From Aphrocallistes beatrix (lineage: Eukaryota > Porifera > Hexactinellida > Sceptrulophora > Aphrocallistidae): a DNA stretch of 64,000 bases. The position numbers and the translations under genes were made by a program. The stretch's first letter is position 1, and every line of letters starts with the position of its first letter. The notes below the pieces were generated by a model. It did not search any database and was not told the DNA's origin. It saw only the letters and a list, made by a program, of their open reading frames with translations. Location of the stretch: the NCBI GenBank assembly GCA_963281255.1, contig OY725490.1, positions 6,200,001 through 6,264,000 of the forward strand, given 5' to 3'. Shown here piece after piece: positions 24,438 through 62,801 of the stretch.

Positions 24438-25670
24438 ATGGCTACACATTTGGTGGAACTTCCTGATCTCGATAGAGAGAATGTGTTCCAGAGAGTGAGG
24501 AGAGAAATAGAAGAGCTATTCCATTCTCTGATAGAGAAGGTGAATGAGAGGAGAGAAGTTCTCCTGACACAGCTGAACCAATGGGAAGAAGAGTTCAACA
24601 GAACACGAGCTAGCTGTATCCAATCTTTAGAAGAGATTAAGAGAGAACGAACTGAGATGGAACAGTTCCTAGCAACGTTAAAATTAAATAAAGCTAGAAC
24701 CTCAATAGAAAAGGGAATTCTTGATCTAAGTAACGAGATTAGTGAGAAAGAACAGAAACTCCATTATCCACAAGTTCAATTTGTTTGTGACAGAAATGAT
24801 TTGAATTCAAAAATTTCCAAATTCGGATCTTTGAATAAAGAGACTGACAATGTGTTAGTCAGGAATTACACTCAACTCTCTAAACCTGTGAAAGTGTTTG
24901 GTACATTTGGGGAAGGAAAAGGAGAGTTCACTAATTCTAAAGGTGTTGTAATCGATAATGATAATCAAAGAATGTTTATTGCTGACATGTCTAACTCTCG
25001 TATTCAGGTTTGGAGTATGGAAGGAGATTATTTGTCTGAGTTTGGTAAAGACATTTTACAATGGCCATGGGATATTGTCATGTTTGATAATTCTATTTAC
25101 ATTTCAGATTGTGGTGGATATTTCTTATCTAAATGGTGTTACAATGAATTTATTCTTTTAAATAAATCTAAAACTTCTAAAAGATCTAAACCTGGTCAGT
25201 TGAATGGTCCATCAGGTCTAGATATCGATGAAGAAGAGATATTTGTTGTTGAGTATTGGAATAAACGTATTTCTGTTTTCGATTTGAATCTCAAATTCAA
25301 AAGAATTATGGCTAATAATGCAATTATTAATTCCTTTTGTTTGCGAGTGAGAAATAACACAATCTACATTGTAGAGAGTACTGGTGTTATTAAACTATTC
25401 TCTAAAACAGATCAACTCCTGAAGACTATTCCAAAGCTTCCAGTTTTCTCTAATTGTATTTATCATTTCAACTTTGATTCTCATTTGAATTTTCTCATCA
25501 CAGATTTTAGTAACAACTCTCTCTTCATCTTATCTCCAGAAGGAGATCTCATTCATTCAATCTATTTTACTGAATTTAACCTAAAGAATCCATTTGGTAT
25601 TGACATCAATAGGGACGGATGTATAGTGCTATCCTTCCAGAAAGGTTCTAAAGCTATTGCTATCTTTTGA
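24438..25670 (+). CDS. Group I coiled-coil / NHL protein, copy C (410 aa)
   Basis: Intact single-exon gene. Residues 10-105 form a charged coiled coil (NVFQRVRREIEELFHSLIEK); there is no RING or B-box. Residues 150-410 form six NHL blades. Variable loop residues relative to the five other group I copies are N166, M184-S185, W209/D212, G226/Y228, G257, Y273-W274-K276, S314, C340, F357, F386 and K402; the framework between is almost invariant. The ATG follows a conserved aattccag, which could be a splice acceptor for a 5' UTR intron. The predicted product is a cytosolic dimer or oligomer that presents a variable binding surface. Ligand unknown. Confidence 0.9.
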   Translation: MATHLVELPDLDRENVFQRVRREIEELFHSLIEKVNERREVLLTQLNQWEEEFNRTRASCIQSLEEIKRERTEMEQFLATLKLNKARTSIEKGILDLSNEISEKEQKLHYPQVQFVCDRNDLNSKISKFGSLNKETDNVLVRNYTQLSKPVKVFGTFGEGKGEFTNSKGVVIDNDNQRMFIADMSNSRIQVWSMEGDYLSEFGKDILQWPWDIVMFDNSIYISDCGGYFLSKWCYNEFILLNKSKTSKRSKPGQLNGPSGLDIDEEEIFVVEYWNKRISVFDLNLKFKRIMANNAIINSFCLRVRNNTIYIVESTGVIKLFSKTDQLLKTIPKLPVFSNCIYHFNFDSHLNFLITDFSNNSLFILSPEGDLIHSIYFTEFNLKNPFGIDINRDGCIVLSFQKGSKAIAIF

Positions 25671-26230
25671 TTGTATTTCATTCCAGAACGTTTGTTGCTA
25701 ACTTTTGCCTCAATGAACTATATTAGTAAGCTTCTTAGCATCCTGTAGTAGTACTTTGTATTCTGTATATTACTCCAATCAGTATAATATATTTGTTTCA
25801 TAGGATAGAACTCTAATTTGAGAATTTTGATTTTAATTTTCCTGCTTTACGATGAACTTTCAGACAGTTTCTGTCTCCTATTAGCATTGCATATATATAC
25901 TTGACACGTGTATTGCACTGAGTATATTTTTATTATGGTCAGTGGTGTAAACTTGGAGTTTCTTCATGGTGTACCAACATGTTACAAACCCAACCTCCAC
26001 CAACTAGACTCGATACATTTGGTAGTGGATAGAACCGATGTATTACAAGTGAATACCAGTCAAATGTGTCATAAACCTTACTCTGAAAGCTTCCCAGTCT
26101 TTCCAATTGAATTATGGTCACAAATGATTTGGTATACTATAATAGAGTCGTTAGCAAATCCCAATCTAAGTAGTATGCATGATCCTTTGCCGTTCACGAG
26201 GGTTCCGTTCTTGAGAATTGCCTAGAACGG
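25671..26230 (+). repeat. Group I 3' flank, duplicated
   Basis: The non-coding flank of copy C matches the flank of copy G (about 60380-60990), including the words gaaagcttcccagtctttcc and ttctgagaattgcc-like ends. It shows that C and G came from a common duplicated unit. No gene is supported in it. Confidence 0.75.
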
Positions 26231-26390
26231 CTAGACTAAAGGTTTGCGAAAAGCTTGGGGTTAGGTTCCTAGTATTCTAGAAGATTCATTAAGTAACATC
26301 CATAATATCCTAAATGAAAGCTTTATGTTCGTCTAGTAAAGAGACAAATAAAGCTATGGTTAATAAGATTAAGTTTAATACCATAGATCA

Positions 26391-27640: not shown

Positions 27641-27771
27641 TTCCATATTTTCTGATCAAAGCATTGTCTCGCTCGGGGATACCATTTGTAAACTTTCACA
27701 TTTTTTTGTTTTTCAATGATGACCTTTTAGATATTTTAAATTTTCATTTATTAGTGCTTATTGTTGTTTGA

Positions 27772-30700
27772 ATGGCCTCCATTAATCAAGGACATATTGG
27801 CAGTGAGTTTTATTTTTTGGAGATTTTTTCACTATGTGTGTAACTACTCTTATTTAAATATTTATTTTAGGATCTCATGGTCAGAGAGTGCCACCTCTAA
27901 TAAAAGTGATAATAAACACCCTGAAAAACTATCCAGATGGAAGTCAGATTTTGAAAGTAATTTATTATAATAACTTCCGGTTCATATACTTTCTAATTAA
28001 CTATGTACTATGTATATACTGTATTTAGATATACTGACAGATTTTAAATAAATCTCCAATCACCCACTCTATCTACGATTTTCAAGAAATTTCCAATTTG
28101 ATCATATATGAAAATGCGTACCAATGAAACTTTCGTACAACTGACCTGAGAGTTGGAAGTGAATGACAATAGACTATTTCAATAGGGCGTATGACAAAGC
28201 TGATAGGGTGGAATAATACTTCCCCCCCTCTTTTTATAATAAAAATCGACTATGGACTATGACATAATAAATCAGGGTTAAACAAGTATCATATTTCATC
28301 CCATTTAGGAGTTAATACAAAATGCGGACGACGCGTGTGCTACTGAGGTGGAGTTCCTCCTGGACGAGACGCATCACAGCACAGATCGCCTTATACATCC
28401 GGAAGTTGGTAAGTACCAGGGTCCCGCGTTGTATGCATGGAACAATGCGGTATTCCAAGAAGATGATTGGGAAGGAATCCGAGATATCAGTGTGAGTAGG
28501 AAGGAGAAGAAAGTCCTCAAAGTAGGCCGATTCGCACTTGGATTCATATCTGTCTACCACATTACTGGTAAGTTTAAGTATGATACTCCATAACGATAAC
28601 TATCAGGTTAGTAGTTGCATTATAATCAAAGATATTACTTCCTTTCCAAATCAGAAAAAAATCCGCTTAGGATAGCAAAGACATTTAGATTTTTAATTCT
28701 TAAGTCACTTCGTTATTCTAACTTTTGACAGTTCTCAAAAAGTTGAAATATTTATATTCGTATATTATAAATATTAACTGTTTTTAAATATTTTATTTTG
28801 ATATCTTCAGATTTTCCCTGCATTCTGAGCAACGAAGATGTCCTCCTACTAGACCCCCACATGGTGATAGACCCCACTGGCGGTCTCATCATAGGGTTGG
28901 AAGACTTCGTTACTAATGAACGAGTAGCCAGCCATCTCGAATCTCTACGCAGTTATTTTGGCTACAACTGTGCACGAAAATATGATGGGACTATTTTCCG
29001 TTTTCCACTGAGGACAGGTTTATATGAAACCTCTCTTCCCAATAATGTCTACAATGCGAGGAGAGTGATAAGATCTCTTTTCGAACCGTTCAGAAAGGAG
29101 GTGGAGAATTGTTTATTATTCATGAAGACTGTCCATTCAGTTAAAGTGTCAGTTAAAGACAGTTCAGGAATAAGACTACTCTATTCTGTTAAAGTTGATG
29201 CTTCATTCAGAGAGAGATTGAATCTGCACAGAAAGGAAATATTTGAATTCATTGAAAATGAATATCACATCCAGTCATCTAAAATTTTCATATCTCTATT
29301 TTCAACCAACTTCATAGACTTCGACCAAACCAAGACAGTGCGTCTCTGGCTAGTAATGAACACGCTGGGTCTACCTGATCAAGCTGGCAGATCTGGATCG
29401 AGACAATTCGAGAGTTACTTGCCTTGGTTCGCCGTTGCTCTCCCTCTCCCTCATTCCCAACACACATTGCACGCGCTTCTAGATCAGGACTGTTGTTGGT
29501 CAGAGGAATTTATCGATTCAGCTCTTTTCTTTAGTTTTATTGATAATAACATTCCTGCCATTCCATTATCCTGTGAGGTGTTGAATTTTATTGGAAATCT
29601 GTTCTGCTTCTTGCCAATAGCCGCGAGTTCTAAATTTCCATTTCATATTCACGGCTATTTTGCTCTGAGTACGAATCGTCGCTCCATTAAATGGCCTCGA
29701 TTTGACGATCTGAGTGATGAAGCGAAGTGGAACAAGGACCTGGTGGAGCAGTTAGGAACCATTTCATACGCCGTTCTGATACACTTGGCGGTCTCCAGAT
29801 TCCGCACACAGGGAAGGAGCATGCTCCATTACAGCTTGTGGTCTTGTCTCCCTTCTGATAGCGAGACAGATGAGTTGCAATCCATCATCCATTCAGGAGC
29901 TCTGCACATCCTACGGAACTCGAAATTGGTCTGTTCTAAATTAGACTCCACTTGGATAAAACTTTGCAAAGGCTACTATCTGCCTTCATCATTCGGTAGA
30001 ACTATCCCTCATGAGGAGGTGTGTACTGACCTTCTTCTCAAACTCTCTCTGCCAGTAGTTGAATTGACTCCTGAAGTGTCTAATGTCATTAGAAGTTATG
30101 AGTTCTTAGAACAACAAATTTCTGAATTGATCATTAGTCCTACTTTGATGAGACATATGTTAGTTCGATTTCAAAACGATGAAAATTTACTTGACATCCT
30201 CAGGCAAGAAGATAAGGTCTGCTCTCTGTTAGAAGTTGTTCTGTGTGATCTTAACTTTTCATCTCAAGACATTCCTAAGATGCTTAATGGTATCCGACTA
30301 ATTCCAGTGTGTAATTCAGACTTGCCAATGATATTTGGGAATAGAAGTGCTGCTAGATATTATATCAGTGAGGGATCCCAAGATTTCCTCAAAATATTTC
30401 CTGGACTGGAGAGGCTGTTTGTTAAGCGGTCGCTTCCTCATCCTATCAGGAGCTCTCTATTGGATTTGAGTGGACCTGGATTCATCAATATAGAAAACAT
30501 AACGAATATTAACACTAATCCAGAGTACTTCGTCAACTTTCTAGAATCTTCAATGAAATGTTTCTTCAATCTGGGTTCTCCTATATTCTGGAATCCAGGA
30601 ACTATCAACCAGCCAGACAAGATTTGGATAGAACAAGTGTGGAAATTCATTGATCAAGATTACAGCATAATAAACGTGTTAAAAAGACGTAGTATGCCCA

Positions 30701-33700
30701 TCTTACCAAAGCAAGCCCTCCACACTCCTCAAATAAATCTCCTCCCACTCAGTACCACAACTATGCCTTATCTCGAGCACAGTGCAGCACCTGCTCACTC
30801 AGAGATAGAACAGCTGATTGCATCGAGTGGCTGTCATGTTTGTCATCGCCACATCTTCATATTGCCTTACTATCAGTTCGTACTGCCACCAATTCCACAG
30901 GGATTACTGTCCATCCTCAAATTACCAACAATTCAAGGTTCATTTCGCCAAAAGATTTCCAATGCAGATGACTCAATTAGACAATCATTGATAAATTTGT
31001 TGCTTTCTCTCGATTTCACTGATAACAATGAAATCAATATCATAAAATCGCTTCCTCTCTTTCTTTCTATGTCGAAAGAGTGGATTACGCTCAATTCCGT
31101 GACAAGATATTGTCTGCCTCCAGACTCTGTGCTTCAGCAGATGGAATGTTATCCAACCCACTTCCTAAATCCTTTCATTAACCAGAACGTTAAACTCTGT
31201 TGGAAAGTTGGTATAAATTCTATTTCTCTTGAAGAAGCAATCCAATTTCATTTGTTACCTTTAATCTCCTCAAATTCTCTTTGGAACAAACCAAATGAAC
31301 GCAAACAACTCTCTATTTGGATTTTAAAGAATTATTCACTCTATAGTCCCAACTTCTTATCCATATTATCCACCACGAAGTGGTTACTGGACTCCTGCAC
31401 GGATTCCAAGCAAGCAATGCATATAATTCAGCTCTATTCTCCTACCAATTTATTTGACCCACAAGACGTATTGATATCTCAACTATTGCCTTCCAATATG
31501 AGAGGCGTATTCCCAAATGAAATCTATTCGAGGTATATCACTAACTTGAAATCTTCTGGATTGATGTCGAGTGCAAACTTGGATTATCAGAACCTAGAAA
31601 ATATAATCAGGCTAGCTCTTCAAAATGTTAAAAATGTCACCACAGAAAATTTTCCAAATTGGATGAGTGCTTTAGTTGAGTTATTGAGTCTATATTTTAC
31701 AGAATTTGATCTGAATCCAAGAATTTGGAATATTTTCATGCAAACCTCTTTCATCATCCCATCTCCGAGGAATCACTGTAGTTACTATCCCAGGTCGCTA
31801 CCTTTCTTCCCAGATTCCAATCATTTTTTTAAACCTAGTGAAGTCACCCTCTGCTCTGACAGGGAGTCCTGTCTGCTGGCTGGTGTTCAGCCTCTGCTGG
31901 TCGATAGATCAGATCCGAGCAAGAACTATGCAGTGATCTACCAGCGTATGGGTTTCCAGACTGACATAGCTCCATCTTTAGTTTGCAAACAGTTGATATT
32001 GATCACTCAGCAAAGTAGCTTGAAACATAGCGAGATTCATTCTTATGTAAAGAAGATTTACAAATATTTTTCACACTTAATTACTTCGAATAGAATTGAT
32101 CTTGTGTATAACGAGTTTCCTGCCAATTTTGTTTATATTCCTGAGTTTGGTTTTTATGACACTAACCACGTTGTTCTCTCATGCGATAACAAATTGTTTC
32201 CTTATGTCTTCTCTCTAGAGAAGTACTATCCTCCATACGAGGAAAATTTGACTCTATTTTTTAGACATTTTAATGTCGAATCTGAAATAAGCTTTTCCAA
32301 ATGTCAAATAATTCTCCAACAACTTCAGAACTTTCATCTTCCTCCAAATAAAGTTAGCTTAGCTGTGAGAGTTGTACAAATTTCTGCAGACTTGATTCAA
32401 ATGGAATCCCCCACCACTCATTCTTTAGTGCTAGCACAGAACTGTATGATATTCCCGGCTGGTCAGTGTGTATTCAATGATTTAGCCTGGATGAAGAGGT
32501 CTCAGTTATCTACCCACAAGCCTATCGTTCATTCAGGCGTGTCCAACACGATTGCGAGTAAGATCGGCTGCTTACCAGCAAGCCTTGAAATGACTCCAAC
32601 AGCTGAGAGCATTTCCTACTCATTCATATCGGATGCTGGACAGAGTGAGGATTTGGTCCAAAGACTGAGAGGCATTCTTGAGGGGTACCGTGTCCACTCG
32701 GATGTGTTCTTTGAACTGATTCAGAATTCAGACGATGCAGGTGCTAAACAGGTTAAAATCCTCTTCGACTACACATCTCATCCTTGCAGTTCAGTATTGC
32801 ATAAGAACATGGAAGGAGTGCATGGACCTGCTCTCTACGTGTTTAACGATTCTAGATTCACAGATCAGGATTTCGCGAGTATTCTCAAACTCTCCTCCGG
32901 AAATAAACTGAACGATACTGCTAAGATAGGTCGATTCGGTGTAGGATTCAATGCAGTGTATAACTTCACTGATTGTCCCAGCTTTGTAAGTGACCGCTTA
33001 GTCCAGATCTTCGATCCTCTTAGGGAGTACATCGGTCCTCTTAGCAGAGACTCAGGTATTAGGCTCCGTTTCACAGATGATGAAGCTGCTATCTCTACTT
33101 TCCGTGATCAGTTCCGAGTGTATCAGGATATCTTCGAGTGTGACATTCTGAACCATAATCCTTATGAATACACTCTTTTCCGTTTGCCTTTCCGAATGAA
33201 TCACAGCCAACTCTCAGATAAAGTATTTAACCCTGATGCAATAGCTAAACTTCAGGCGAGCATTCTCCGAGAACTTCCTCTGCTTCTGTTGTTTCTGCAG
33301 AATGTGAACAGAATTGAAGTTTATGAGAGAACTAGAGTTGGTATTCCTTTTAAGAAATTGCTAATTGTGTCTAAGAACGAGTGTTCAACAACACATTTCT
33401 TACAAGAAAATAGACAATATTTTGAAACTTATTTGCATCGTGTCCAGTTCAATTCTCCTAATCTTCCAATTAGTCCAATTCGTACATCCGATCTCCTGTC
33501 TATACATTGTGAGTTTCCAAATAAGAAACATTCACAGCTAGACTTCCTTATAGCCTATGCCAGTGGAGTTGGAGAATGTTTTGATGTTTTACAGAGATTT
33601 AACTATTCAGATGTTACTTTCTTGCCTTCATGTGGTGTGGCTATCCCTATAAATTTTCTACAATCACTACCAGATTATTTGATATGTAAATTGTACACAT

Positions 33701-36700
33701 TCCTACCCCTTCCTATCAGGAGCCCGATGCCTCTCCATATCAATGGATATTTTTCTCTCTCTAGCTCGAGGAAAAACTTGAGTGATGTAGACGTATCCAG
33801 TGGTGAAGAAGTCACAGATCTACGTACAGATTGGAATATTGCTATCGTCAATGATGCTCTCTCCAATGCTCTGATTTGTGCTCTCGAGGCATTGCCTCTG
33901 CTAGAACCTCTATGTAGCAGTAGACAGGCAAAACACTATGAAAACTATTATTCTCTTTGGCCTGTCAAGGACAATTCGTACATTATTTGGAAGGCTTTTC
34001 CTGAGTACTTCGCAAGACGCATTGTTGAATCGTTTCCCTCGACGAAATTGTTTTCTTGTGCTCACGATCCTTCTGTTTGGGTTTCATTTAATGAGATAGC
34101 ATTCTTATCTGTTAATCACGCACTCGACAGTGATTTTCTTCAATTTATTTATACGATAGCTTATCAACGTAGATTTTTATTCGCATACCTTCCTTCGTTT
34201 TTTATGTCAACTAAGATATACAAAGTTTTTTCAGAACTGAAACCCGAAAAAGTGTTTAATCTCAGAAAAGTTTGTGAGCTTTTCATCTTTCCTAAGTTGC
34301 CCGAGCTACCTTTAGAGATGCATACACTCATTTTTAACAGTCTCACTCCATTATGCAATGAAGACTCAGAAGATTGGTTACTGGATGCATTGTGTAATAT
34401 CGCATTCATTCCTTGTGGAAGTATTGAGTCTGGATTTCAACTAAGAGAGCCTTCAGAAGTCGTTTGTCCCAATACGAAGATAGCTTCATTGTACCAGCGC
34501 GATGAGATGAGAATTCCTGCATCAGAACTCCATGAGCACTTCGACCTTAGCAAACCAGACCTGATCCCCACCATATTGAAGAGGATGGGTGTTATCTACG
34601 ACAGACTACCAGAGTGTGAAGTCGTCAGTCGCTGTGTCATCACGTCCAATCCTGGTATTAATGACCCGATTCGACACGCTACCATTCTGATTGAGTATCT
34701 TTCTCATGAAGATGAATCCTTCTTCAATTCTATTTATCCTAAAATTAAATCAATTCCATTCATTCCAACTCATAAGGATGATCTCTTTGAAATATTTTCC
34801 ATCCCTTACATTCCATTCACCTCTCCGGACAGCTGTTACACATTCTCGCGTCGATACCTCATTTCACCCTTGCACCCATGTGCCTCTAAGTCTTGTGATA
34901 TTAGACATCTTGCGGTAAAGTTTCACATTTCAAATAACCCTTCACTTGAAATAGTTCTAGAAGTATTGGGAATTATAATATCTAATGTCGATTCTATCCG
35001 GAGTAAAAACTTTAAGATTGAGAAAAGAATCCAGGAAATCTACACTTTCATATCTAAAATTGTAACGAGAGATGAAGTTAAAATGTCAGCAGTTAAAGAG
35101 ATACTGAAAGATGAACCATGGATATGGCATCCAGACTATAAACACTTCTACACTTCTAACCAAGTAATTCTTTCTCAAGAATTCCAATCTTTAGATGAAA
35201 ACCAGTACATTATAGCTTTCCCTTTTGCAGACACTCTACGAGATGAAAATTTTAAGAGGTTTCTTATAGAAGTTGGTGTTAAGGAACACATTAATGATAG
35301 TACAATTATTGAGTGTTTGCAGAGAATCCGAGAAGAATTTAGGGATGAAGCTCTCCAAACGAATCTCGTCAGATTAGTAATAAAATTGATTGAATTAATT
35401 GAAAATTGTGAAGCTTGTTCTAGTTCTACATTCCTTCTTAGTCAAATCAATGTTCTCCATTCTCCCTCTGAACTCTATGTGACCTTATCTCCACACTTAA
35501 TGGGGGAATATTCAAACATATGTGTACATCCTCGAATCAATCAAACAAGAGCTTTACAGCTTGGTGCGAGAGTTTCAGAAGAACTGTTTTCTACCTTCAT
35601 GGATCTCGATGAAACAGATTTTGGTATAGAAGAAGAGATCACTGATAGAATTCAGAGTTTAGTTCGAGACATTCCAATGGATACTCTGGTTAAAGAACTC
35701 ATTCAGAATGCAGAAGTGCCAAGGCGACTGAAATTGTATTCATCTTAGATGCTCAGGATTACACTGGACATAGGGAAACTCTGTCACTTCCGGGAGAAGT
35801 GTATCCTTATTGGAAACATCTCCACTCCTTCCCATCTCTCTCAGTGTACAATAACAAAGGATTCACTGAGGAAGATTTCAAAGGAATTCAAGCTCTAAGT
35901 GTGGGAGGGAAAACAGAAGACAGAAATAGTATTGGAAAGTTTGGTCTGGGATTCAACTCTGTCTATCAAATCACTGACGCACCAACATTCATCACTACGC
36001 AAAATGGACAGAATGGATTGACTTTTTGTTGTTTCGATCCATTCATCAAGTACATAGGGAGTAATTTTGAACCTAGGAGTTCTAAGAAAAAGAGAGGAAA
36101 GAAGATTGACATAGAAAGTGAAAACTATGCAAAGTTTTCTGACCAGCTATTCCCTTTTAGATTCGAAAGATTTTCTGACAATCAAGAATTTGTTCACAGT
36201 CTAGCTAACATGTGGAATCATAGCGAGTTCACAATGTTTAGATTCCCTCTTGATATTGAGAGTGGATCAATACAACCTATGTTTACTCAACGGATTCAGT
36301 ATAGAAAAGAACAATCGAGAAGACATTGTTCACTTGAAAAGTTTTCTGAAATTATTATTGAAAAGATCAAGAGTAACTCAGAAATGTTACTATTCCTCAC
36401 TCACGTTCAATCTCTCAAAGTTATTAGTATAAACAGATTCGGGTGTCTCAAACTAGAATGTTCTCATCACATTAAAATGAAAGAAAAATCACTTGTACCC
36501 ATGCCATCATACTTTTCCCACACTGCAATGGGACAACCTATAATGATCCAGATAAAAGAGTGCATAAATACAGGAATCTCTAATACCTTCCTCATTTATT
36601 CCTTTCCTCAAGTGAACATTGATCAATATGTACAGTTTTCACCAGAAATTCAATGTCACTCTCTCAATTATATTGAAGAGAAAATGTGGGGATTTGGTGG

Positions 36701-39700
36701 CATTGCGGTATGCGTTTCTCATTTGTATAGAAATGTCTACTCTAGTCTATTTACATTTTTGCCAGTTGGGTCTAAAGTTAGATTTCCTGTTCATTTAAAC
36801 GCTCCTCTAATTTTTGATTCATCGAGACAACATCTTCACGATCAACTATCTCCTTGGGCCGAGGCCTGGCATTCTTCTATTAGAGAATGTATCCTCGTTC
36901 CTCTATACGTTATGCTACTAGCTGACTTACGAAAGCCAGTCCAACTTCTAAATTCTGTAGAAGATAAAAATAGGTACTTTAACTGGTTCTACTCCCTTCT
37001 TCCTGACAAGTTAGTGAGTCAACAATTCCTAGTTAAGTTGAGTGAAGAAATTTGTATCTTTCTATACGAAGAAAACATTTCTATACTATTATGTGATAAT
37101 CTTGATATGTCCGATGAGTTGATTTGGTACCCGTTACACGGGCCTGGTTGTGGTGTCTTTAAGCCAGACTTATTTTTCCCTTTAACAGAATATAAGTATG
37201 ATGTTAATACGCCATATTTAGAAGGCAGAGGAGCTACCGATCCTGCTAGTTTGATTGAGAAGAAACGAAAGGAAGATGAACTACGAAAATCTCTAATTGC
37301 TATTTTATTTCCACTCTCATTTGCTCCAGATAGTGTATACAACTGTTTCTCCAGATTTAAACTTGTAAAGTTGGATCAAACAATCCTTCTCGATTATCTC
37401 AGGAGCAATATTTGCTCTTTATTTCTTGAAAACACATTTCCGTGCAATCTAAACACTTCTGTTATTAGTTTTGCACAATTTCAAACCATTCTAGAATATA
37501 TCTTAACTGCCAATGAAGGCATATTCACAAATGCTAACATTATTCCACTGTGTATTGATGTCAACAGTAACGTTCGTTGTTTTAGGAAATTCAAACCTAA
37601 ATACCTTAATACGTTTTCTTCCCTGATTCCACATCGTTCCAACAGTTTCGTATCTCCTCTTTACAAGTTAAATGTTATACTAAAGATGACAACACTCCGC
37701 TATGTTAGGGAATTGAATAGCAATTATCTTATGAAACATTTAAATGTTAATAAATTCGAGGCATATGACCAGTATGCATTATTCTGGCGATTTGTTGTTC
37801 AGATGAAATTAAATGAAGAACAACTAGACAAGTTTGGTACACATAAACTTATTCCAGTGCATTCAAATCATGAAACGCTTTGTTTTTTCCAAGTTCAATT
37901 TTTGAAATTTATTGTTATATGTACTCCAGAAAATGAAAGAGCAGATGCCAGTTTATTCAAAGCTTTAAAAAAGTTAGGATGTCCTTGTCTCAAACTCGAC
38001 TTTTTTGCTCAGCATTCTCAACCCCTCTTATTCAAAGAAATTATAACATACCTCAACGGGATTGCAATTTCTCAAATACGTTCTGCGAATATTATTTTGG
38101 AGTCACTCTCTTTTTCCAGTAATCTCTCAGTCAGTCTAGAATCAACGGAAGCCAATAAATTATACCAAATTTTGTGCCAACTGGATCCAGCGAAGTATAC
38201 CAACACTCAACTGTCCACTATTTTTCATCTCAAGATGTTCAAAACTCATTCAGGCGAATATCTTGCTCTCAGCCAATGTGAAATTTGTTTTATCAATACT
38301 GAAAGTCTTATTCTTGGATCTGCACTACGAAAGAAACTTGTAGAGCATTATAAATTGGTTATTTTTGAATCTCATGCAGACAATTTCTTAAATTCTTTAT
38401 GTTTACGACTTGAAATTCAACTCATAGATGTTCACAACCTACTATCCTATTATGTTTTTCTACACCTCCCCAATATCCCTATTCTTGAACAGAAATATAT
38501 TATAGGTTTTATTTCACAGAAGTTAGCTGCACATGATTGTGATATCAACGTGAACGCCCTCGTAAAAACATTATGCGATATTCCTTTCATATATCATGTA
38601 GATACACATCGTCGAGTGTCGAGTTCGATATTTTTATTCTGCAGAAATTGCATTTTTCACAGAATTCTTACCCTACGAGATTCTCCCTGAAGAATGGAGA
38701 GATAAAAGTTTCAAAGATTTGTTTGATCAACTCGGACTACGGAATGAGATATCTCTGGATGATATATTGATAGTTGCAGAAAAATTTTCTAAAGACGAAA
38801 TCCCGAGCGAGAGTTTGCCCCATTTATTAGGTGCACTTGAAACGTTGTTAAGCAAGTGTGATTTTAAACTAAATCAAAAGAGCATTGAATCCCTTACACA
38901 AATTGGTCAACTGGAATTCCTTCCTGTCTGGAAGATAGAAGATATTAATTCTAATCAAAGAATTGACTCCACACAACTGGTTAGGTTTTGTGATGCCCAG
39001 TTAAACCAATTTCGAAACTGTTGCTGTACCACTGCTTGGATACATGAATATGCATTTCATATTCCTTCACAATTTTTCCAACACCTGGAAATAATGAAGC
39101 GACCAGATGTTGAGTTGGTTAAAGAACATTTAATGAAAATAACTAAGCAAATAACATTTCACCATCAGTTAACAAACATTCCTTCTTTTGTGGATCAATA
39201 TTTTTTCTCTTCTTATGGATATCTAGAGGAACATTCTTCTGATACTCCTGATCTAACATTTCATGAGTTTCACGGACTACCATGTATTCTATGGCAGAGC
39301 AAACTCTATTATCCGATTAACATGCTCTTCTCCTCGAGTGAAGACCTCTCACCATTCGTAATACAGATACCTCCTGATCTAGCCAGTCGATACAAGAAAT
39401 TTCTAGAGAAGAAGTTGAGAAAAAGGCTTGTTATAAGCACTTCGCACTTGTGTTGCTAGAAATATCTGAACATCTAAGCGCTATTAATGAAGAGTTGAAA
39501 GAGAGTGAATTCCTCAAGCAAGCTGTGACTGTGTTCAATTGGTTGATTGAAGCTCTAAGAAAATTTGATAGCTCTTCCGCACCGCTGGATCTAAACCTAG
39601 CACAGGTAATGCTACTGACCAATGATTCGAAACTGTTTCCTAGTGGAGAGGTTATATTCGGAGATAACCCATCACTTCTCTCAAGAGTAAATAAACTCAA

Positions 39701-43030: not shown

Positions 43031-44257
43031 ATGGCTACGCGTTTGGTTGAACTTCCTGATCCCGATAGAGAGAATGTGTTCCAGAGAGTGAGGAGAGAAA
43101 TAGAAGAGCTATTCCATACTCTGATAGAGAAGGTGAATGACAGGAGAGAAGTTCTCCTGACACAGCTGAACCAATGGGAAGAAGAGTTCAACAGAACACG
43201 AACTAGCTGTATCCAATCTTTAGAAGAGATTACGAAGGAACAAACTGAGATGGAACAGTTCCTAGCTACGTTAAAATTAAATAAAGCTAGAACCTCAATG
43301 GAAAAAGGAATTGCTGATTTAATTAACGAGATTAGTGAGAAAGAACAGAAACTCCATTATCCACAAGTTCGCTTTGTTTCTGACGGAAATTATTTGAATT
43401 CAAAGATTTCTAAATTCGGATCTTTGAGTAAAGAGTATAACAATGTGTTAGTCAGGAATTACACTCAACTCTCTAAACCTGTGAAGGTATTTGGTACATT
43501 TGGGAAAGGAAAAGGAGAGTTCACTAGTCCTAAAGGTGTTGTAATCGATAATTATAATCAAAGAATATTTATTGCTGACAAGTATAATTCTCGTATTCAG
43601 GTTTGGAGTTTGGAAGGAGATTATTTGTCTGAGTTTGGTAAAGACATTCTACAATGGCCATGGGGGATTGTCATTTTTGATAATTCTATTTACATTTCAG
43701 ATTGCAGTGGACATTTTTTATCTAAATGGTGTTACAATGAATTTAATCTTGTAAACAAATCTAAAACTTCTGAAGGATCTAAACCTGGTCAGTTGAATTG
43801 TCCATCAGGTCTAGATATCGATGAAGAAGAGATATTTGTTGTTGAGTTTTGGAATAAACGTATTTCTGCGTTTGATTTGAATCTCAAATTTAAAAGAATT
43901 GTGGCGAATAATGTTAATTCTTATTGTTTGCGAGTGAGAAATAACACAATCTACATTGTAGAGAGGACTGGTGTTATTAAACTATTCTCTAAAACAGATC
44001 AACTCCTGAAAACTATTCCAAAGCTCCCAGTCTTCTCTAATGATATTTATCATTTCAACTTTGATTCTCAATTGAACTTTCTCATCACAGATCGTAGTAA
44101 CAACTCTCTCTTCATCTTATCTCCAGAAGGAGATCTCATTCATTCAATCTCTTTTACTGAATTTGACCTAAAGAATCCACGTGGTATTGACATCAATAGG
44201 GACGGATGTATAGTGCTATCCTTCCAGATTGGTTCTAAAGCTATTGCTATCTTTTGA
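43031..44257 (+). CDS. Group I coiled-coil / NHL protein, copy D (408 aa)
   Basis: Intact single-exon gene with the group I coiled coil (residues 10-105) and six NHL blades. At the variable loops it has S, KY, W/G, S/H, C, FW-K, R, D, R, R and I in the order used for copy C. It is two residues shorter than C because of a deletion in the blade-4 turn (NNVNS against NNAIINS). The ATG again follows aattccag. It sits directly downstream of the sacsin-PARP gene on the same strand, as copy C does at the deleted locus. Confidence 0.9.
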   Translation: MATRLVELPDPDRENVFQRVRREIEELFHTLIEKVNDRREVLLTQLNQWEEEFNRTRTSCIQSLEEITKEQTEMEQFLATLKLNKARTSMEKGIADLINEISEKEQKLHYPQVRFVSDGNYLNSKISKFGSLSKEYNNVLVRNYTQLSKPVKVFGTFGKGKGEFTSPKGVVIDNYNQRIFIADKYNSRIQVWSLEGDYLSEFGKDILQWPWGIVIFDNSIYISDCSGHFLSKWCYNEFNLVNKSKTSEGSKPGQLNCPSGLDIDEEEIFVVEFWNKRISAFDLNLKFKRIVANNVNSYCLRVRNNTIYIVERTGVIKLFSKTDQLLKTIPKLPVFSNDIYHFNFDSQLNFLITDRSNNSLFILSPEGDLIHSISFTEFDLKNPRGIDINRDGCIVLSFQIGSKAIAIF

Positions 44258-49230: not shown

Positions 49231-49232
49231 TA

Positions 49233-50421: not shown

Positions 50422-51657
50422 ATGGCTAGTGCTAATGTGTTGAGAAGTGATTCATTCCTCTCTCAGGTGGAGAGAGTGAGGAGAGAAATAGGAACAAAGT
50501 TCCAGAGATATCATCAAGTGTTAGTGGAGAGGGAAACCATTATATTGTCAGAGCTGGATGAGCTGGTGATTAGGTACAGGGGGGAAGGAGTCAACCAACA
50601 GATTGAGGAGCTGAATCGTTTGAAAGAGTCACAACTATGCTCTGTGAAGGAAAACGAAAATAAAGAAACTGTGAAGAAGAGTGTGTCTGTGTTGGAAGCA
50701 CGCGTGAGGGAGATAAGAGCTAAGTTTGAGAAAGATATCGCTAGCATGCGAGGAGTAGTGTTGAAGTGGGATGAGAGTATGTTCGATAGACTGAGCGAGA
50801 TAGGAGCGGTCGAAGTGAGTGCTGTCCCTCCCTATGAATCTAAAGGAGACCCTCTCATAGTAGCCTGCAAACACAATTCTAGTATATCTACATCACCCGG
50901 AGTGTTCTTCTGTCCTAGATCAATCGCAATAGATTCTAAAACTGACAATGTTTACATCTGTGATTCATTGAACCATCGTATACAAGTGTTTACTAAAAAT
51001 CTGGAATTCTTATTTGATTTCAAAGGGAAGACTGCTTGTCCAGCTGGCATATGTATCAACCATAGCAAAGTCTATGTTACGCAATTCATGAACCATTCCC
51101 TGAATGTGTATAGTACTGGAGGGAAATTCTTAAACTTTATTGGAAAGAAAGGGAAAGGAAAACTAGAATTTAATTGGCCTAGAGGAGTTGATGTATCAAA
51201 TGAGAAAAAAAGAATTTACATTTGTGAGAGAAATAATGCTAGAATTCAATGTTTAAACTTGGATCTTACATTCCATTCATTTATTGATGATATTCGCTCT
51301 CCAAAAGACGTTAAGCTGACTTCTGATGAGGTTGTAGTGTTGACTCCGGGAGATTCTTATGTTCGCTACTACAATTATTCTCACCAGCTTATCAGACAGA
51401 TAATACCTCGTGGGGAAAGGAATCTAGTGATAAATCCATTGTACTTTTTTGTAGATAAAGTTCGCAACATTCTAATGACAGATTTTGCTACTAATTATGT
51501 GTTAATCTTCTCTAACCGAGGAGAATTGATACACAAATTCGGTCAGAGAGGAGGAGATAGAGGAAAGTTCATTGATGTTCGTGGAATAGCTCTGGACTCT
51601 GAAGATAGAATAATAGTAGCTTCTGAGAATCCCAATAATTGCATCCAACTATTCTGA
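50422..51657 (+). CDS. Group II coiled-coil / NHL protein, copy I (411 aa)
   Basis: Intact single-exon gene. The leader (residues 10-120, VERVRREIGTKFQRYHQVLV) is a coiled coil related in layout but not closely in sequence to group I. NHL blades follow from about residue 160 (FFCPRSIAIDSKTDNVYICD, then SLNHRIQVFTKNLEFLFDF, FNWPRGVDVSNEKKRIYICE). No RING or B-box. Its only close relative in the window is copy J, and the few propeller differences between them lie at or near turn positions. Predicted binding protein; ligand unknown. Confidence 0.9.
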   Translation: MASANVLRSDSFLSQVERVRREIGTKFQRYHQVLVERETIILSELDELVIRYRGEGVNQQIEELNRLKESQLCSVKENENKETVKKSVSVLEARVREIRAKFEKDIASMRGVVLKWDESMFDRLSEIGAVEVSAVPPYESKGDPLIVACKHNSSISTSPGVFFCPRSIAIDSKTDNVYICDSLNHRIQVFTKNLEFLFDFKGKTACPAGICINHSKVYVTQFMNHSLNVYSTGGKFLNFIGKKGKGKLEFNWPRGVDVSNEKKRIYICERNNARIQCLNLDLTFHSFIDDIRSPKDVKLTSDEVVVLTPGDSYVRYYNYSHQLIRQIIPRGERNLVINPLYFFVDKVRNILMTDFATNYVLIFSNRGELIHKFGQRGGDRGKFIDVRGIALDSEDRIIVASENPNNCIQLF

Positions 51658-52875: not shown

Positions 52876-52887
52876 ACCCCCATCAAC

Positions 52888-53651: not shown

Positions 53652-53849
53652 CCATCAACCATATACAAAATCAGTTTATATTTTAATCTCTAAAGACGGC
53701 TATTAGTAGAGTTTCAGAACATTAGTTGTATTGAGATAATTACATATATATGTACATAATTTGTTAGCATCCAATTCCATACATATTTACAGCAATTTAT
53801 CAATCATTTATTCAAACTCTGATTCGAAAGATTAAAGTACAAATTCCAG

Positions 53850-55082
53850 ATGGCTACGCGTTTGGTGGAACTTCCTGATCCCGATAGAGAGAATGTGTTC
53901 CAGAGAGTGAGGAGAGAAATAGAAGAGCTATTCCATTCTCTGATAGAGAAGGTGAATGAGAGGAGAGAAGTTCTCCTGACACAGCTGAACCAATGGGAAG
54001 AAGAGTTCAACGGAACACGAGCTAGCTGTATCCAATCTTTAGAAGAGATTAAGAGAGAACGAGCTGAGATGGAACAGTTTTTAGCTACGTTGAAGATCAA
54101 TCAAGCTAGAACTTCAATAGAAAAGGGAATTGCTGACTTAAATACTGTCATTAGTGAGAAGGAAAAGAAACTCCATTATCCAACATTCCACTTTGTTTGT
54201 GATCGAAATAGTTTAGAATTGGAGATTTCCAAATTTGGATCTTTGAAGAAAGAGATTGGCAATGTGTTAGTCAGGAATTACACTCAACTCTCTAAACCTG
54301 TGAAAGTGTTTGGTACATTTGGGAAAGGAAAAGGAGAGTTCTCTTATCCTAGAGGTGTTGTAATTGATAATAATAATCAAAGAATATTTATTGCTGACAA
54401 ATCTAATTCTCGTATTCAGGTTTGGAGTTTGGAAGGAGATTATTTGTCTGAGTTTGGTAGAGGTATTTTACAATGCCCATGGGAAATCGTCATTTTTGAT
54501 AATTCTATTTACATTTCAGATTGCAGTGGACATTTCTTATCTAAATGGTGTTACAATGAATTTACTCTTGTAAATAAATCTAAAACTTCTGAAGGATCTA
54601 AACCTGGTCAGTTGAATTATCCATCAGGTCTAGATATCGATGAAGAAGAGATATTTGTTGTTGAGTTTTTGAATAATCGTATTTCTGTTTTCGATTTGAA
54701 TCTCAAATTCAAAAGAATTACAGCTAATAATGCAATAGTTAATTCCTTTTGTTTGCGAGTGAGAAATAATACAATCTACATTGTAGAGAAGACTGGTGTT
54801 ATTAAACTATTATCTAAAACAGATCAACTCCTGAAGACTATTCCAAAACTTCCAGTCTTCTCTAATCGTATTTATCATTTCAACTTTGATTCTCAATTGA
54901 ACTTTCTCATCACAGATTATGGTAACAATTCTCTCTTCATCTTATCTCCAGAAGGAGATCTCATTCACTCAATCTCTTTTACTGAATTTGACCTAAAGAA
55001 TCCACTTGGTATTGACATCAATAGGGACGGATGTATAGTGCTATCCTTCCAGAATGGTTCTAAAGCTATTGCTATATTTTGA
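53850..55082 (+). CDS. Group I coiled-coil / NHL protein, copy F (410 aa)
   Basis: Intact single-exon gene of the group I type. Variable-loop residues in the copy C order are Y166, KS, C/E, S/H, Y, FL-N, K, R, Y, L and N402. The region 85-135 (KINQARTSIEKGIADLNTVI) is shared with copy G and differs from C, D, E and H, which suggests F and G are sisters with later changes in the loops. It is head-to-tail with copy E and with group II copies on the same strand. Confidence 0.9.
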   Translation: MATRLVELPDPDRENVFQRVRREIEELFHSLIEKVNERREVLLTQLNQWEEEFNGTRASCIQSLEEIKRERAEMEQFLATLKINQARTSIEKGIADLNTVISEKEKKLHYPTFHFVCDRNSLELEISKFGSLKKEIGNVLVRNYTQLSKPVKVFGTFGKGKGEFSYPRGVVIDNNNQRIFIADKSNSRIQVWSLEGDYLSEFGRGILQCPWEIVIFDNSIYISDCSGHFLSKWCYNEFTLVNKSKTSEGSKPGQLNYPSGLDIDEEEIFVVEFLNNRISVFDLNLKFKRITANNAIVNSFCLRVRNNTIYIVEKTGVIKLLSKTDQLLKTIPKLPVFSNRIYHFNFDSQLNFLITDYGNNSLFILSPEGDLIHSISFTEFDLKNPLGIDINRDGCIVLSFQNGSKAIAIF

Positions 55083-55930: not shown

Positions 55931-57145
55931 ATGGCTAGTGCTAATGTGTTGAGAAGTGATTCATTCCTCTCTCAGGTGGAGAGAGTGAGGAGAGAAATAG
56001 GAACAAAGTTCCAGAGATCTCATCTGGTGTTTGTGGAGAAGGAAGCCATTCTATTGTCAGAGCTGGATGAGCTAGTGGTTAGGTACAGGGGGGAAGGAGT
56101 CAACCAACAGATTGAGGAGCTGAATCGTTTGAAAGAGTCACAACTATCCTCTGTGAAGGAAACGAAAATAAAGAAACTGTGAAGAAGAGTGTGTCTGTGT
56201 TGGAAGCACGCGTGAGGGAGATAAGAGCTAAGTTTGCGAAGAGTAGTGTCGAAGTGGGATGAAAGTATGTTCGATAAACTGAGCGAGATAGGAGCGATCG
56301 AAGTGAGTGCTGTCCCTCCCTATGAATCTAAAGGAGACCCTCTCATAATAGCCTGCAAACACAATTCTAGTATATCTACATCACCCGGAGTGTTCTTCTG
56401 TCCTAGATCAATCGCAATAGATTCTAAAACTGACAATGTTTACATCTGTGATTCATTGAACCATCGTATACAAGTGTTTACTAAAAATCTGGAATTCTTA
56501 TTTGATTTCAAAGGGAAGGCTGCTTGTCCAGCTGGCATATGTATTAACCATAGCAAAGTCTATGTTACGCAATTCATGAACCATTCCCTGAATGTGTATA
56601 GTACTGGAGGGAAATTCTTAAACTTTATTGGAAAGAAAGGGAAAGGAAAACTAGAATTTAATTGGCCTAGAGGAGTTGATGTATCAAATGAGAAAAAAAG
56701 AATTTACATTTGTGAGAGAAATAATGCTAGAATTCAATGTTTAAACTTGGATCTTACATTCCATTCATTTATTGAGGACATTCGCTCTCCCAAAGATGTT
56801 AAGCTGACTTCTGATGAGGTTGTAGTGTTGACTCCGGGAGATTCTTGTGTTCGCTACTACAATTATTCTCACCAGCTTATCAGACAGATAATACCTCGTG
56901 GGGAAAGGAATCTAGTGATAAATCCATTGTACTTTTTTGTAGATAAAGTTCGCAACATTCTAATGACAGATTTTGCTACTAATTATGTGTTAATCTTCTC
57001 TAACCGAGGAGAATTGATACACAAATTCGGTCAGGGAGGAGGAGATAGAGGAAAGTTCATTGATGTTCGTGGAATAGCTCTGGACTCTGAAGATAGAATA
57101 ATAGTAGCTTCTGAGAATCCCAATAATTGCATCCAACTATTCTGA
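55931..57145 (+). pseudogene. Group II coiled-coil / NHL copy J, frame broken in the coiled coil
   Basis: Near-identical to copy I, but an A run is one base shorter at about 56160 (gaaacg against gaaaacg), giving a stop at 56180-56182. A further 20-base loss at about 56236 restores the original frame. The propeller (about 56234-57145, 303 codons) is fully open. The full-length protein cannot be made; a propeller-only product from the ATG at 56234 is conceivable. It differs from I in the propeller at only four residues (T/A, D/E, Y/C, R/G). Confidence 0.88.
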
Positions 57146-58240: not shown

Positions 58241-58341
58241 TGTGCTATCCGCTGGCCCTCCGTCCTATCCCGGAAATTAGGTATCTAGATTTTCCGGGAC
58301 GGTCCCGTCCCGTCCTGGAAATTAGGCATACCCCCATCAAC

Positions 58342-58942: not shown

Positions 58943-59146
58943 CCATCAATCATATGCAAAATCAAAGTTTGCATTTTAATCTCTGAAGACGGCTATTAGT
59001 AGAGTTTCAGAACATTAGTTGTATTGAGATAATTACATATATATGTACATAATTTGTTAGCATCCAATTCCATACATATTTACTCCTAGCAATTTATCAA
59101 TCATTTATTCAAACTCTGATTCGAAAGATTAAAGTACAAATTCCAG

Positions 59147-60379: not shown

Positions 60380-61549
60380 TTGTATTTCATTCCAGAACCT
60401 TTGTTGCTAACTTTTGCCTCAATGAACTACCTTTATAAGCTTCTTAGTGTCCTATAGTAGTACTTTGTATTCTGTATATTTACTCCAAACAGTGTAATAT
60501 ATTTGTTTCTTAGGATATAACTCTAATTTGAGAATTTTAATTTTAATTTTCCTGCTCTACGATGGACTTTCAGACAGTTTCTGTCTTCTATTAACATTGC
60601 ATATATACTTAACACGTACTTGTATATTGCATTGAGTTTATTTTTAGTATAGTCAAGGGTGTAAACTGGAGTTTCATCATGTGGTACCAACATGATACAA
60701 ACCCAACCTCCACCAACTAGACTCGAGACATTAGGTAGTGGATAGAACCGATGTATTGCAAGGGCAGTGTTTTATCGCGAATACCATTCAAATGTGTCAA
60801 AACCTTACTCTGAAAGCTTCCCAGTCTTTCCAATTGAATTATGGTTCCAAATGATTTGGTATACTATGATAGAGTGGTTAGCAAATCACAATCTAAGTAG
60901 TATGCATTAATCCCTTGCCTTTCGCGGGAGTTCCGTTCTTGAGAATTGCCGAAAACGGCGAGACTAAAGGTTAGCGAAAAGCTTGGGCATATGTCTCAAG
61001 AATGTGAAGAAACTTACAAAATACGTTGAATCGATGAAAATATGTAACTAAAAATAGAAAAATTATTTAATTTTGGAAGGAAATACTTGATAAGTCTGAA
61101 AATTATAGTATCAACGCAGCAGCATTCATTTTAACTAATTCGAAAAATGTTTCTTCGAATGAAAGTTGGAATATCTGTCGTTGTTATCTAAATCCTCACC
61201 TTAATAAACTAGGAATGTTAATTCGATTCATGAAATATTTTCTATTCTAAAACGACATGAATGAATAGATTGTTTATTTTTTAATAAAGAAAAATAGCAT
61301 ATTACTGTTTTAAATTATTTATGTGGTTAGTAGTTGATAGCAAAGATGCATCAGCCACTTACAAAATCAAAGTTTGTGTAATTAATCTCTGAAGATGGTT
61401 AGTGGAGTTTCAGAACATTAATTGTATTAAGATATTTACACATATACGTAATCTATTAGCATAATCCAATCTTATAAATATTTACTTTAGCAATTTATCA
61501 ATCATTTAGTATTCAAATTCTGATCGAAGAATTATAGTCTAAATTCCAG
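60380..61549. other. Intergenic: group I flank, then AT-rich DNA
   Basis: 60380-60990 matches the flank of copy C. 60991-61370 is AT-rich with nothing recognised. 61390-61549 is the conserved 5' flank of group I genes, ending in aattccag before the ATG. Confidence 0.65.
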
Positions 61550-62801
61550 ATGGCTACGCGTTTGGTGGAACTTCCAGATCCCGGTAGAGAGAATGTGTTC
61601 CAGAGAGTGAGGAGAGAAATAGAAGAGCTATTCCATTCTCTGATAGAGAAGGTGAATGAGAGGAGAGAAGTTCTCCTGACACAGCTGAACCAATGGGAAG
61701 AAGAGTTCAACAGAACACGAGCTAGCTGCATCCAATCTTTAGAAGAGATTAAGAGAGAACGAACTGAGATGGAAGAATGTCTTTCTAAATTGAAAATAAA
61801 TAAAGCTAGAACCTCAATGGAAAAGGGAATCACTGATCTTAGTAACGAGATTAGTGAGAAAGAACAGAAACTCCATTATCCACAAGTTCGCTTTGTTTCT
61901 GACGGAAATTATTTGAATTCGAAGATTTCTAAATTCGGATCTTTGAGTAAAGAGACTGACAATGTGTTAGTCAGGAATTACACTCAACTCTCTAAACCTG
62001 TAAAAGTGTTTGGTGCATTTGGGAACGGAAAAGGAGAGTTATCTGGTCCTAGAGGTGTTGTAATCGATAATGATAATCAAAGAATATTTATTGCTGACAA
62101 GTATAATTCTCGTATTCAGGTTTGGAGTTTGGAAGGAGATTATTTGTCTGAGTTTGGAAGAGGTATTCTACAATCGCCATGGGGGATTGTAGAATTTTTG
62201 TAAGATTGTAATTTTTGATAATTCTATTTACATTTCAGATTGCAGTGGACATTTCTTATCTAAATGGTGTTACAATGAATTTACTCTTGTAAATAAATCT
62301 AAAACTTCTGAAGGATCTAAACCTGGTCAGTTGAATTATCCATCAGGTCTAGATATCGATGAAGAAGAGATATTTGTTGTTGAGTCTTCGAATCAACGTA
62401 TTTCTGTTTTCGATTTAAATCTCAAATTCAAAAGAATTATGGCTTTTAACGCAATAGTTAATTCTTTTTGTTTGCGAGTGAGAAATAACACAATCTACAT
62501 TGTAGAGATGACTGGTGTTATTAAACTATTTTCTAAAACTGATCAACTCCTGAAGACTATTCCAAAGCTTCTTGTCTTCTCTAATAATATTTATCATTTC
62601 ACCTTTGATTCTCAATTGAACTTTCTTCTCACAGATTGGAGTAACAACTCTCTCTTCATCTTATCTCCAGAAGGAGATCTCATTCACTCAATCTCTTTTG
62701 CTGAATTTAACCTAAAGAATCCATGTGGTATTGACATCAATAAAGATGGCTGTATAGTGCTATCCTTCCAGAAAGGTTCTAAAGCTTTTGCTATCTTTTG
62801 A
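61550..62801 (+). pseudogene. Group I coiled-coil / NHL copy H, broken by a 19-base insertion
   Basis: The coiled coil and first NHL blade are intact. At about 62190 a 19-base insertion that repeats local sequence (gattgtagaatttttgtaag then attgtaattttt) causes a stop at 62201-62203. The remaining propeller (from about 62210 to 62801) is open in the shifted frame and retains loop residues G, KY, S/G, S/H, Y, SS-Q, M, N, W, C and K. Full-length product lost unless the insertion is spliced or is an assembly artefact. Confidence 0.87.

What the first reader, a model, noticed from the sequence alone, without database searches (positions are those of the whole stretch)
24438..62801. Tandem NHL propeller family with variation focused on one face of the propeller
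Six group I paralogues (C, D, E, F, G, H) share an almost invariant framework, yet differ repeatedly at paired loop sites in all six blades. In copy C numbering, with residues in order C/D/E/F/G/H: 166 N/S/N/Y/S/G; 184-185 MS/KY/MS/KS/MS/KY; 209 W/W/S/C/S/S; 212 D/G/G/E/G/G; 226 and 228 G-Y/S-H/S-Q/S-H/G-Q/S-H; 257 G/C/Y/Y/C/Y; 273-274 YW/FW/YR/FL/NV/SS; 314 S/R/R/K/R/M; 340 C/D/C/R/D/N; 357 F/R/Y/Y/F/W; 386 F/R/F/L/L/C; 402 K/I/K/N/K/K. These are the x-P-x-G turn and the AD-xx-N turn of NHL repeats. By blade topology (a-b-c-d strands) both are on the same face, the usual ligand face. This is the pattern expected of a diversified recognition surface. I know of no description of such a family; ligand and role are inference.
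Basis: partly seen in the sequence, partly recalled or inferred. Interest (0 to 1): 0.93.

Follow-up and report, generated by a model that had tools for sequence, protein, structure and literature searches.

The report
Hypervariable glass-sponge beta-propeller recognition family
A glass sponge carries hundreds of genes for related ring-shaped (beta-propeller) proteins whose copies differ most strongly at one ring of contact points on one face, and those points evolve under selection for change, as expected of a large inherited set of recognition molecules whose targets are still unknown.

Summary
All 15 residue columns listed are exact, though copies E and H are frameshifted. The nearest named relatives of the proteins come from the glass sponge Oopsacas minuta. 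In 29 intact group I copies the most variable sites are the residues beside the x-P-x-G proline and the two after the AD aspartate, in all six blades. dN/dS there is 1.75, against 0.36 in the rest of the propeller; site models agree and eight mosaic null simulations fall far short. Two further subfamilies of this genome and paralogues on Oopsacas and other glass-sponge-like contigs vary at the same positions. Of 14 published LIN41 RNA contacts, 13 fall in this ring and one beside it; the predicted fold matches the LIN41-RNA structure. Best reading: a germline-diversified family of coiled-coil-NHL recognition proteins, with at least 324 NHL places genome-wide. Against: some N-terminal sites also score as selected, and all tests compare paralogues, not alleles. 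Ligand, expression and role (immune, allorecognition, anti-RNA) are inferred.

The parts
24438..25670 (+). Group I copy C: intact single-ORF coiled coil plus six-bladed NHL propeller, 410 aa
   Evidence: ORF; Pfam NHL; AlphaFold2 model pLDDT 90.3
43031..44257 (+). Group I copy D, intact, 408 aa
47059..48280 (+). Group I copy E, pseudogene by sequence (4-nt and 1-nt deletions)
53850..55082 (+). Group I copy F, intact, 410 aa
59147..60379 (+). Group I copy G, intact, 410 aa
61550..62801 (+). Group I copy H, pseudogene by sequence (19-nt insertion with in-frame stop)
24933..24935 (+). copy C codon 166 (blade 1, P-1 ring site)
   Evidence: register; entropy 1.87
24987..24992 (+). copy C codons 184-185 (blade 1, D+1 and D+2); 184 has 13 amino acids in 29 copies
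25062..25064 (+). copy C codon 209 (blade 2, P-1), positively selected
25110..25115 (+). copy C codons 225-226 (blade 2, D+1, D+2), positively selected
25206..25208 (+). copy C codon 257 (blade 3, P-1), positively selected, 10 amino acids
25254..25259 (+). copy C codons 273-274 (blade 3, D+1, D+2), posterior 0.85 and 0.82
25329..25331 (+). copy C codon 298 (blade 4, P-1), variable (entropy 2.29)
25377..25379 (+). copy C codon 314 (blade 4, D+1), positively selected, 10 amino acids
25455..25457 (+). copy C codon 340 (blade 5, P-1), positively selected
25506..25511 (+). copy C codons 357-358 (blade 5, D+1, D+2); 357 positively selected
25587..25589 (+). copy C codon 384 (blade 6, P-1), positively selected, 11 amino acids
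25638..25643 (+). copy C codons 401-402 (blade 6, D+1, D+2); 401 positively selected
50422..51657 (+). Group II NHL gene, intact, 411 aa; member of the subfamily (F3) that shows the same ring
55931..57142 (+). Second group II copy, broken (three stops inside)
13178..14341 (+). Further NHL gene, 387 aa, not analysed for selection
3815..4708 (+). Further NHL ORF, 297 aa, not analysed for selection

Best explanation
This is one array of a large glass-sponge family of intracellular proteins: an N-terminal coiled coil plus a six-bladed NHL propeller, with no RING or B-box found. Shown by sequence: tandem duplication and loss, segmental exchange between copies, and diversifying selection have produced a germline repertoire whose most diversified part is a ring of about 24 residues on the top face of the propeller, four per blade. 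Inferred: that ring is a binding site whose specificity differs from gene to gene, the targets are variable non-self or pathogen-derived molecules inside the cytoplasm or syncytium, and the coiled coil multimerises the sensor and passes the signal on.
Against: No ligand, expression, population or functional data; all tests compare paralogues, not alleles, and the non-self role rests on analogy. Selection is not confined to the ring: the group I N-terminal part also prefers M8 (2dlnL 56.6; sites 8, 10, 11 in an indel-prone tail, 77 and 95) and so does that of F3 (32.2; four sites), though not that of F2. The ring holds about a fifth of group I nonsynonymous differences, so most lie elsewhere. 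Bottom A-B loops are as variable on average as top D-A loops, though without selected sites. Ring dS is raised, in F2 twofold (0.40 vs 0.33; 0.29 vs 0.14; 0.24 vs 0.17). One of the eight null simulations (18.3) would have passed as significant, so small likelihood ratios would not count. No signalling domain was found.
Confidence: 0.65

Rival explanations
1. Allorecognition: the family polices fusion between individuals or infected syncytia, as variable WD40 propellers of HET-D/HET-E do in Podospora, with alleles and copies matched against variable self proteins.
For: Glass sponges are described as syncytial (start of the PMC5684314 abstract in a listing). Podospora HNWD propellers show four diversifying codons per repeat on the interaction face plus repeat exchange (PMC12222747 and PMC4986451 passages), the same logic as here. 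Proteins from ENA contigs include copies without an identical counterpart among the loci of this assembly that I hold, several of them mosaics.
Against: No evidence of high allelic polymorphism as such: the origin of the ENA copies (haplotype, individual or assembly) is unknown. Hundreds of dispersed paralogues are more than known allorecognition loci use (recalled). No NACHT or HET domain in copy C.
Confidence: 0.13
2. RNA-directed restriction: the propellers are sequence- or structure-specific RNA binders, as LIN41 and Brat are, diversified against viral or transposon RNA.
For: The ring positions are the RNA-contact positions of LIN41; NHL domains of TRIM relatives are established RNA binders (PMC9634614, PMC9070667 passages).
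Against: Ring net charge averages only +0.5 to +1.4, ranging from -3 to +5, whereas Brat, Lin41, Mei-P26 and Thin carry a highly positive patch on the top face. Trp/Tyr/Ser/Cys enrichment suits protein or mixed ligands as well.
Confidence: 0.12
3. Diversification for endogenous partners (adaptors for many own proteins, or gamete or reproductive proteins) rather than for non-self.
For: Ring diversification alone does not say what drives it; reproductive proteins also show dN/dS above 1 (recalled).
Against: Lineage-specific expansion and diversification and 12 broken, split or partial group I places beside 29 intact ones in the C3 array (rows, counted by hand) fit an arms race better than stable adaptors.
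Confidence: 0.07
4. No recognition role: relaxed constraint, mutation hot spots or gene conversion produce the variation.
For: Conversion or exchange is real; ring dS is raised, twofold in F2.
Against: dN/dS is above 1, not near 1 (dN > dS p = 0.0009, 0.016, 0.003 in disjoint pairs). Codons within 3 residues of the ring have dN/dS 0.33-0.65. Three subfamilies hit the same register. Mosaic null simulations give 2dlnL of at most 18.3.
Confidence: 0.03

Closest known systems
TRIM-NHL / Brat-type NHL proteins (TRIM2, TRIM3, TRIM71/LIN41, Brat, Mei-P26, Thin)
   Different: No RING or B-box found in copy C; at least 324 NHL places against 24 B-box places in the genome; ring under diversifying selection, whereas the paper reports that the majority of LIN41 RNA-contact residues are identical between species (PMC5908797 passage).
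HNWD NLRs of Podospora (HET-D, HET-E, HET-R)
   Same: Propeller face with four diversifying codons per repeat on a conserved framework, with exchange between copies (PMC12222747, PMC4986451 passages).
   Different: WD40 not NHL; NACHT-HET effector architecture; near-identical repeats inside one gene, here whole-gene arrays; fungal.
Diversified TRIM effectors of vertebrates (TRIM5, finTRIM; recalled)
   Same: Coiled coil plus a C-terminal recognition domain, gene expansion, positive selection in ligand loops.
   Different: B30.2 domain rather than NHL; RING and B-box present.
AIG1-domain tandem expansion of the glass sponge Aphrocallistes vastus (PMC10282587)
   Same: Lineage-specific, largely single-exon tandem cluster in a glass sponge, with a suggested link to pathogen recognition (passages).
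   Different: Unrelated domain; no site-level selection in the passages seen. The word NHL does not occur in the main text of that paper or of the Oopsacas genome paper (supplements not searched).

Membership tests
TRIM-NHL E3 ligases | NHL six-bladed propeller | tested here: met
TRIM-NHL E3 ligases | RING and B-box upstream of the coiled coil | tested here: not met
   No RING or B-box in the Pfam scan of copy C. A stop lies in frame within the 40 codons upstream of the ORF start in 28 of 28 copies viewed. 24 B-box places genome-wide, none in the C3:5.95-6.60 Mb array. RING was not searched genome-wide, and an upstream spliced exon cannot be excluded.
TRIM-NHL E3 ligases | Coiled coil before the C-terminal domain | tested here: inconclusive
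   Helices 16-80 and 84-107, mostly pLDDT 87-96; oligomerisation not tested
LIN41/Brat RNA-binding NHL | Conserved RNA-contact residues on the top face | tested here: not met
   Homologous positions are among the most variable ones
LIN41/Brat RNA-binding NHL | Binds RNA | not testable with these tools
   No assay
HNWD-type variable propeller sensors (works-like comparison) | Diversifying selection at the same few positions of each blade, on the interaction face | tested here: met
HNWD-type variable propeller sensors | NACHT domain and WD40 repeats | tested here: not met
   Pfam scan of copy C: NHL above its cut-off, other rows (propeller models, ATG17-like) below theirs, no NACHT or WD40
Germline-diversified immune receptor family | Multigene array with recombination, broken copies and dN/dS > 1 at ligand contacts | tested here: met
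   'ligand contacts' by homology to LIN41 only
Germline-diversified immune receptor family | Population polymorphism, induced expression or pathogen binding | not testable with these tools
   No population or expression data held

The most novel reading that the evidence does not exclude
Glass sponges, animals built as a syncytium, evolved a repertoire of hundreds of soluble propeller 'paratopes' for cytoplasmic non-self (pathogen or allogeneic) recognition: a fixed NHL scaffold carrying a ring of about 24 diversified, Trp/Tyr/Arg/Ser-rich contact residues shuffled by recombination, convergent with the variable WD40 sensors of syncytial fungi.
Probability: 0.3. Interest if true: 0.96.

Novelty: new variant of a known kind. 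Interest (0 to 1): 0.86.

Why it matters
If true, it adds the NHL propeller to the short list of scaffolds (Ig, LRR, WD40, B30.2; recalled) used for germline recognition repertoires, in an early-branching animal class whose immune and self/non-self receptors are little known. It names the likely ligand residues per gene, so binding partners can be screened directly, and it sets up a clean convergence test: do syncytial animals and syncytial fungi solve cytoplasmic non-self recognition with variable propellers?

Tried and rejected
Relaxed constraint or mutation hot spot: rejected. Recombination artefact in the site models: per-segment trees used and mosaic null simulations run; the first attempt timed out without output, one search gave 8 of 8 results, one of them (18.3) nominally significant. 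The naive posterior is unreliable under the null (12-44 sites above 0.95 at omega 1.0-1.4), so I rest on the size of the likelihood ratios, entropies and pairwise counts, not on posteriors alone. The site models are my own code with nucleotide-tree branch lengths rescaled, not PAML.

Presence/absence variation: ENA-derived proteins (P0001, P0005, P0006, P0008 and others) have no identical copy among the group I loci held (L009-L052) plus E and H, and look mosaic, but whether they come from another haplotype, individual or assembly could not be decided, so I do not claim polymorphism. P0010, P0026 and P0009 are 98.1, 99.3 and 96.3% identical to D, L038 and L019; of P0010's 7 differences none and of P0009's 15 three are in the ring.

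Upstream exon: an AG precedes the ATG in 19 of 28 group I copies but in 0 of 13 copies of subfamily F2, so a splice acceptor there is not a family feature. A spliced leader is reported in Aphrocallistes (PMC10282587, passages).

Literature: no description of such a family in the listings, nor by word search in the main texts of the two glass-sponge genome papers; subscription papers and supplements were not searched.

Rows dropped: of 44 group I loci held (L009-L052), 29 intact copies of C3:5.95-6.60 Mb were analysed for selection, 8 intact copies elsewhere were left out, and 7 broken or partial ones (L025, L028, L044, L049-L052) were left out; further places (mostly partial, one divergent open frame at C3:6455670-6456779) were not fetched. 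F2: all 13 C6:4.72-4.90 Mb rows. F3: the window copy plus 13 of 15 other unbroken full-length rows of 74% identity or more. In F2 and F3 I had seen the variable sites before I set the anchors. One search tested 9 pairs among 15 proteins, chosen after I had seen their alignment. One search used 36 of 120 listed proteins on four contigs, taken as one contig each by equal contig length; only contig 1121861 (via P0155) was checked not to be this genome. In one search I entered 94 of 103 rows, dropping nine second pieces of one gene, and none. Alignment A1, used for the structure, held copy C and 43 of the 88 proteins.
Full report
What it is. The window is G000:C3:6200001-6264000 of a 100.5-Mb assembly in 28 contigs. 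The nearest named proteins are from the glass sponge Oopsacas minuta (four at 40-53% identity), so the host is taken to be a hexactinellid; no call names the species. A DNA search with copy C lists 37 places at 80% or more identity on C3:5.95-6.60 Mb (40 rows scored of 66 candidates), and the protein search adds smaller groups on C6, C1, C11 and C18. Merging the rows of three searches gives at least 324 distinct NHL places; this is a lower bound, since only the best candidates are scored, and it may include ordinary NHL genes or broken copies.

Where the copies differ. In 29 intact copies of the C3 array the most variable sites are 184 (13 amino acids), 257, 314, 384, 209, 357, 226, 225, 340, 274, 273 and 401. 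Anchored on the proline of the x-P-x-G turn and the aspartate of the AD-xx-N turn of each blade, variability peaks at P-2, P-1, P+1, D+1 and D+2 (also D+4 in F2 and F3, and to a lesser degree P+7 and P+8 in group I) and is low at the anchors themselves. The 24 positions P-1, P+1, D+1 and D+2 have mean entropy 2.21 against 0.56 bits for the rest of the propeller. Two of the 24 (211, 315) hardly vary. For the two other subfamilies I had seen the variable sites before fixing the anchors, but the anchors are the P and D motifs. Per site the ring stands out; in total it holds about a fifth of group I nonsynonymous differences (10,400 of 50,473 over all pairs).

Selection. Trees of the N-terminal part and of the two propeller halves reject each other in 6 of 6 swaps (AU p < 0.0005), so site models were run per segment. 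M8 against M8a gives 2dlnL = 76.8 and 110.5 for the halves and 169.7 for the propeller, with selected-class omega 3.3-6.3; the N-terminal part also gives 56.6, with sites 8, 10, 11, 77 and 95. Eight mosaic null simulations of the propeller gave at most 18.3 and omega at most 1.44; one of the eight would have passed a chi-square test. Tree-free counts agree: ring dN/dS 1.75 over all pairs and 1.92 over 14 disjoint nearest pairs, against 0.36 and 0.38 for the rest of the propeller and 0.33 and 0.38 for codons flanking the ring. The dN > dS test on disjoint pairs gives p = 0.0009.

Replication in the same genome. Subfamily F2 (13 copies on C6:4.72-4.90 Mb, 28-30% identical to copy C; 83-89% to each other) and subfamily F3 (group II: window copy 50422 plus 13 on C12, C1 and C11) repeat the pattern: ring entropy 1.82 vs 0.28 and 1.72 vs 0.40, ring dN/dS 2.10 and 2.36, M8 strongly preferred in both propeller halves of each. 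The N-terminal part prefers M8 in F3 (32.2) but not in F2 (2.1, p = 0.15). Of 49 propeller sites with posterior above 0.95 in the three subfamilies, 39 are in the ring, 4.5 expected, and every blade of every subfamily has at least one. Three more sit at P-10, before blades 3 and 6.

Replication elsewhere. Among nine protein pairs from Oopsacas and other glass-sponge-like contigs, the ring holds an excess of differences in all nine (Fisher p 1e-3 to 4e-9; pairs share proteins and were chosen after I had seen the alignment). Group I copies of this genome (37), of Oopsacas (3) and of contig 564171 (4) each form their own clade (support 0.87, 0.99 and 0.98), so the ring diversified separately in each. 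Four contigs with 7-13 group II-like copies each show the same (ring 1.12-1.36 vs 0.30-0.42 bits); for one of them the best match in this genome is 58%, so it is another genome, and the other three were not checked.

What the ring looks like. Ring residues are enriched in Trp (12x), Tyr (4.8x), Arg (2.8x), Met (2.6x) and Cys (2.3x) against the rest of the propeller, depleted in Val, Ile and Pro, and carry a mean net charge of +0.5 to +1.4. Such a composition recalls antibody paratopes (recalled comparison). All ring strings are distinct within each subfamily, differing on average at 15-17 of 24 positions.

Mechanism. Shown: a conserved scaffold, a diversified top-face ring, exchange between copies, broken copies (E, H, L025, L028 and others; 12 broken, split or partial places in the C3 array by my count of the rows). 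Inferred: each copy binds a different target through the ring; the coiled coil oligomerises; non-self or pathogen molecules in the cytoplasm drive the selection. No RING or B-box was found in copy C; 24 B-box places exist genome-wide, none in the array, so these are not TRIM proteins by that test. Most copies start with MAT or MAS, with a stop in frame close upstream in 28 of 28 viewed, and Oopsacas entries start in the same way.

Relation to the known. It works like the variable WD40 propellers of Podospora HNWD proteins but shares neither repeat family nor domain architecture. It is related in fold to TRIM-NHL proteins; in LIN41 the majority of RNA-contact residues are identical between species, the opposite of what is seen here. 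No paper in the listings of my searches (library limited to open licences) describes it, and the main texts of the two glass-sponge genome papers do not contain the word NHL.

Verdict. Observation confirmed; interpretation of a diversified recognition surface supported and extended to three subfamilies and to other glass-sponge-like genomes; biological role open.

Noticed in passing
window 28798-42134: Large sacsin-like ORFs (Pfam SACS, two ORFs) and, further on, a separate ORF with a PARP catalytic domain sit between group I copies C and D.
   Followed up: partly
window 100-3190: Overlapping ORFs of a retroelement (zinc knuckle, protease-like, reverse transcriptase, RNase H) at the window start. 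Described only.
   Followed up: no
window 15998-17545 and 21078-22634: Two tandem cytochrome P450-like genes (first one Pfam p450; second not scanned) share a long near-identical middle while their ends differ, suggesting gene conversion (read).
   Followed up: no
window 10480-11559, minus strand: ORF matching Pfam ethylbenzene dehydrogenase (EB_dh, E = 4e-10), with a signal-peptide-like start and hydrophobic end (read).
   Followed up: no
L053-L065, upstream of the ATG: The 45 bases before the ATG are almost identical in all 13 copies of subfamily F2, although ring codons differ strongly; group I copies instead often have AG just before the ATG (19 of 28).
   Followed up: partly
group I residue 248; F2 241 and 377: A recurrent selected position ten residues before the x-P-x-G proline, on the loops joining blades 2-3 and 5-6, loops reported as variable among human TRIM NHL domains (PMC9634614 passage).
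   Followed up: partly
P0001, P0005, P0006, P0008 (ENA contig of 683,317 bases): Group I proteins without an identical copy among the loci held, mosaic by segment; may reflect a second haplotype with other copies.
   Followed up: partly
group I residues 77 and 95; F3 residues 91, 94, 129, 135: A few selected sites outside the propeller, in or near the helical N-terminal part.
   Followed up: no
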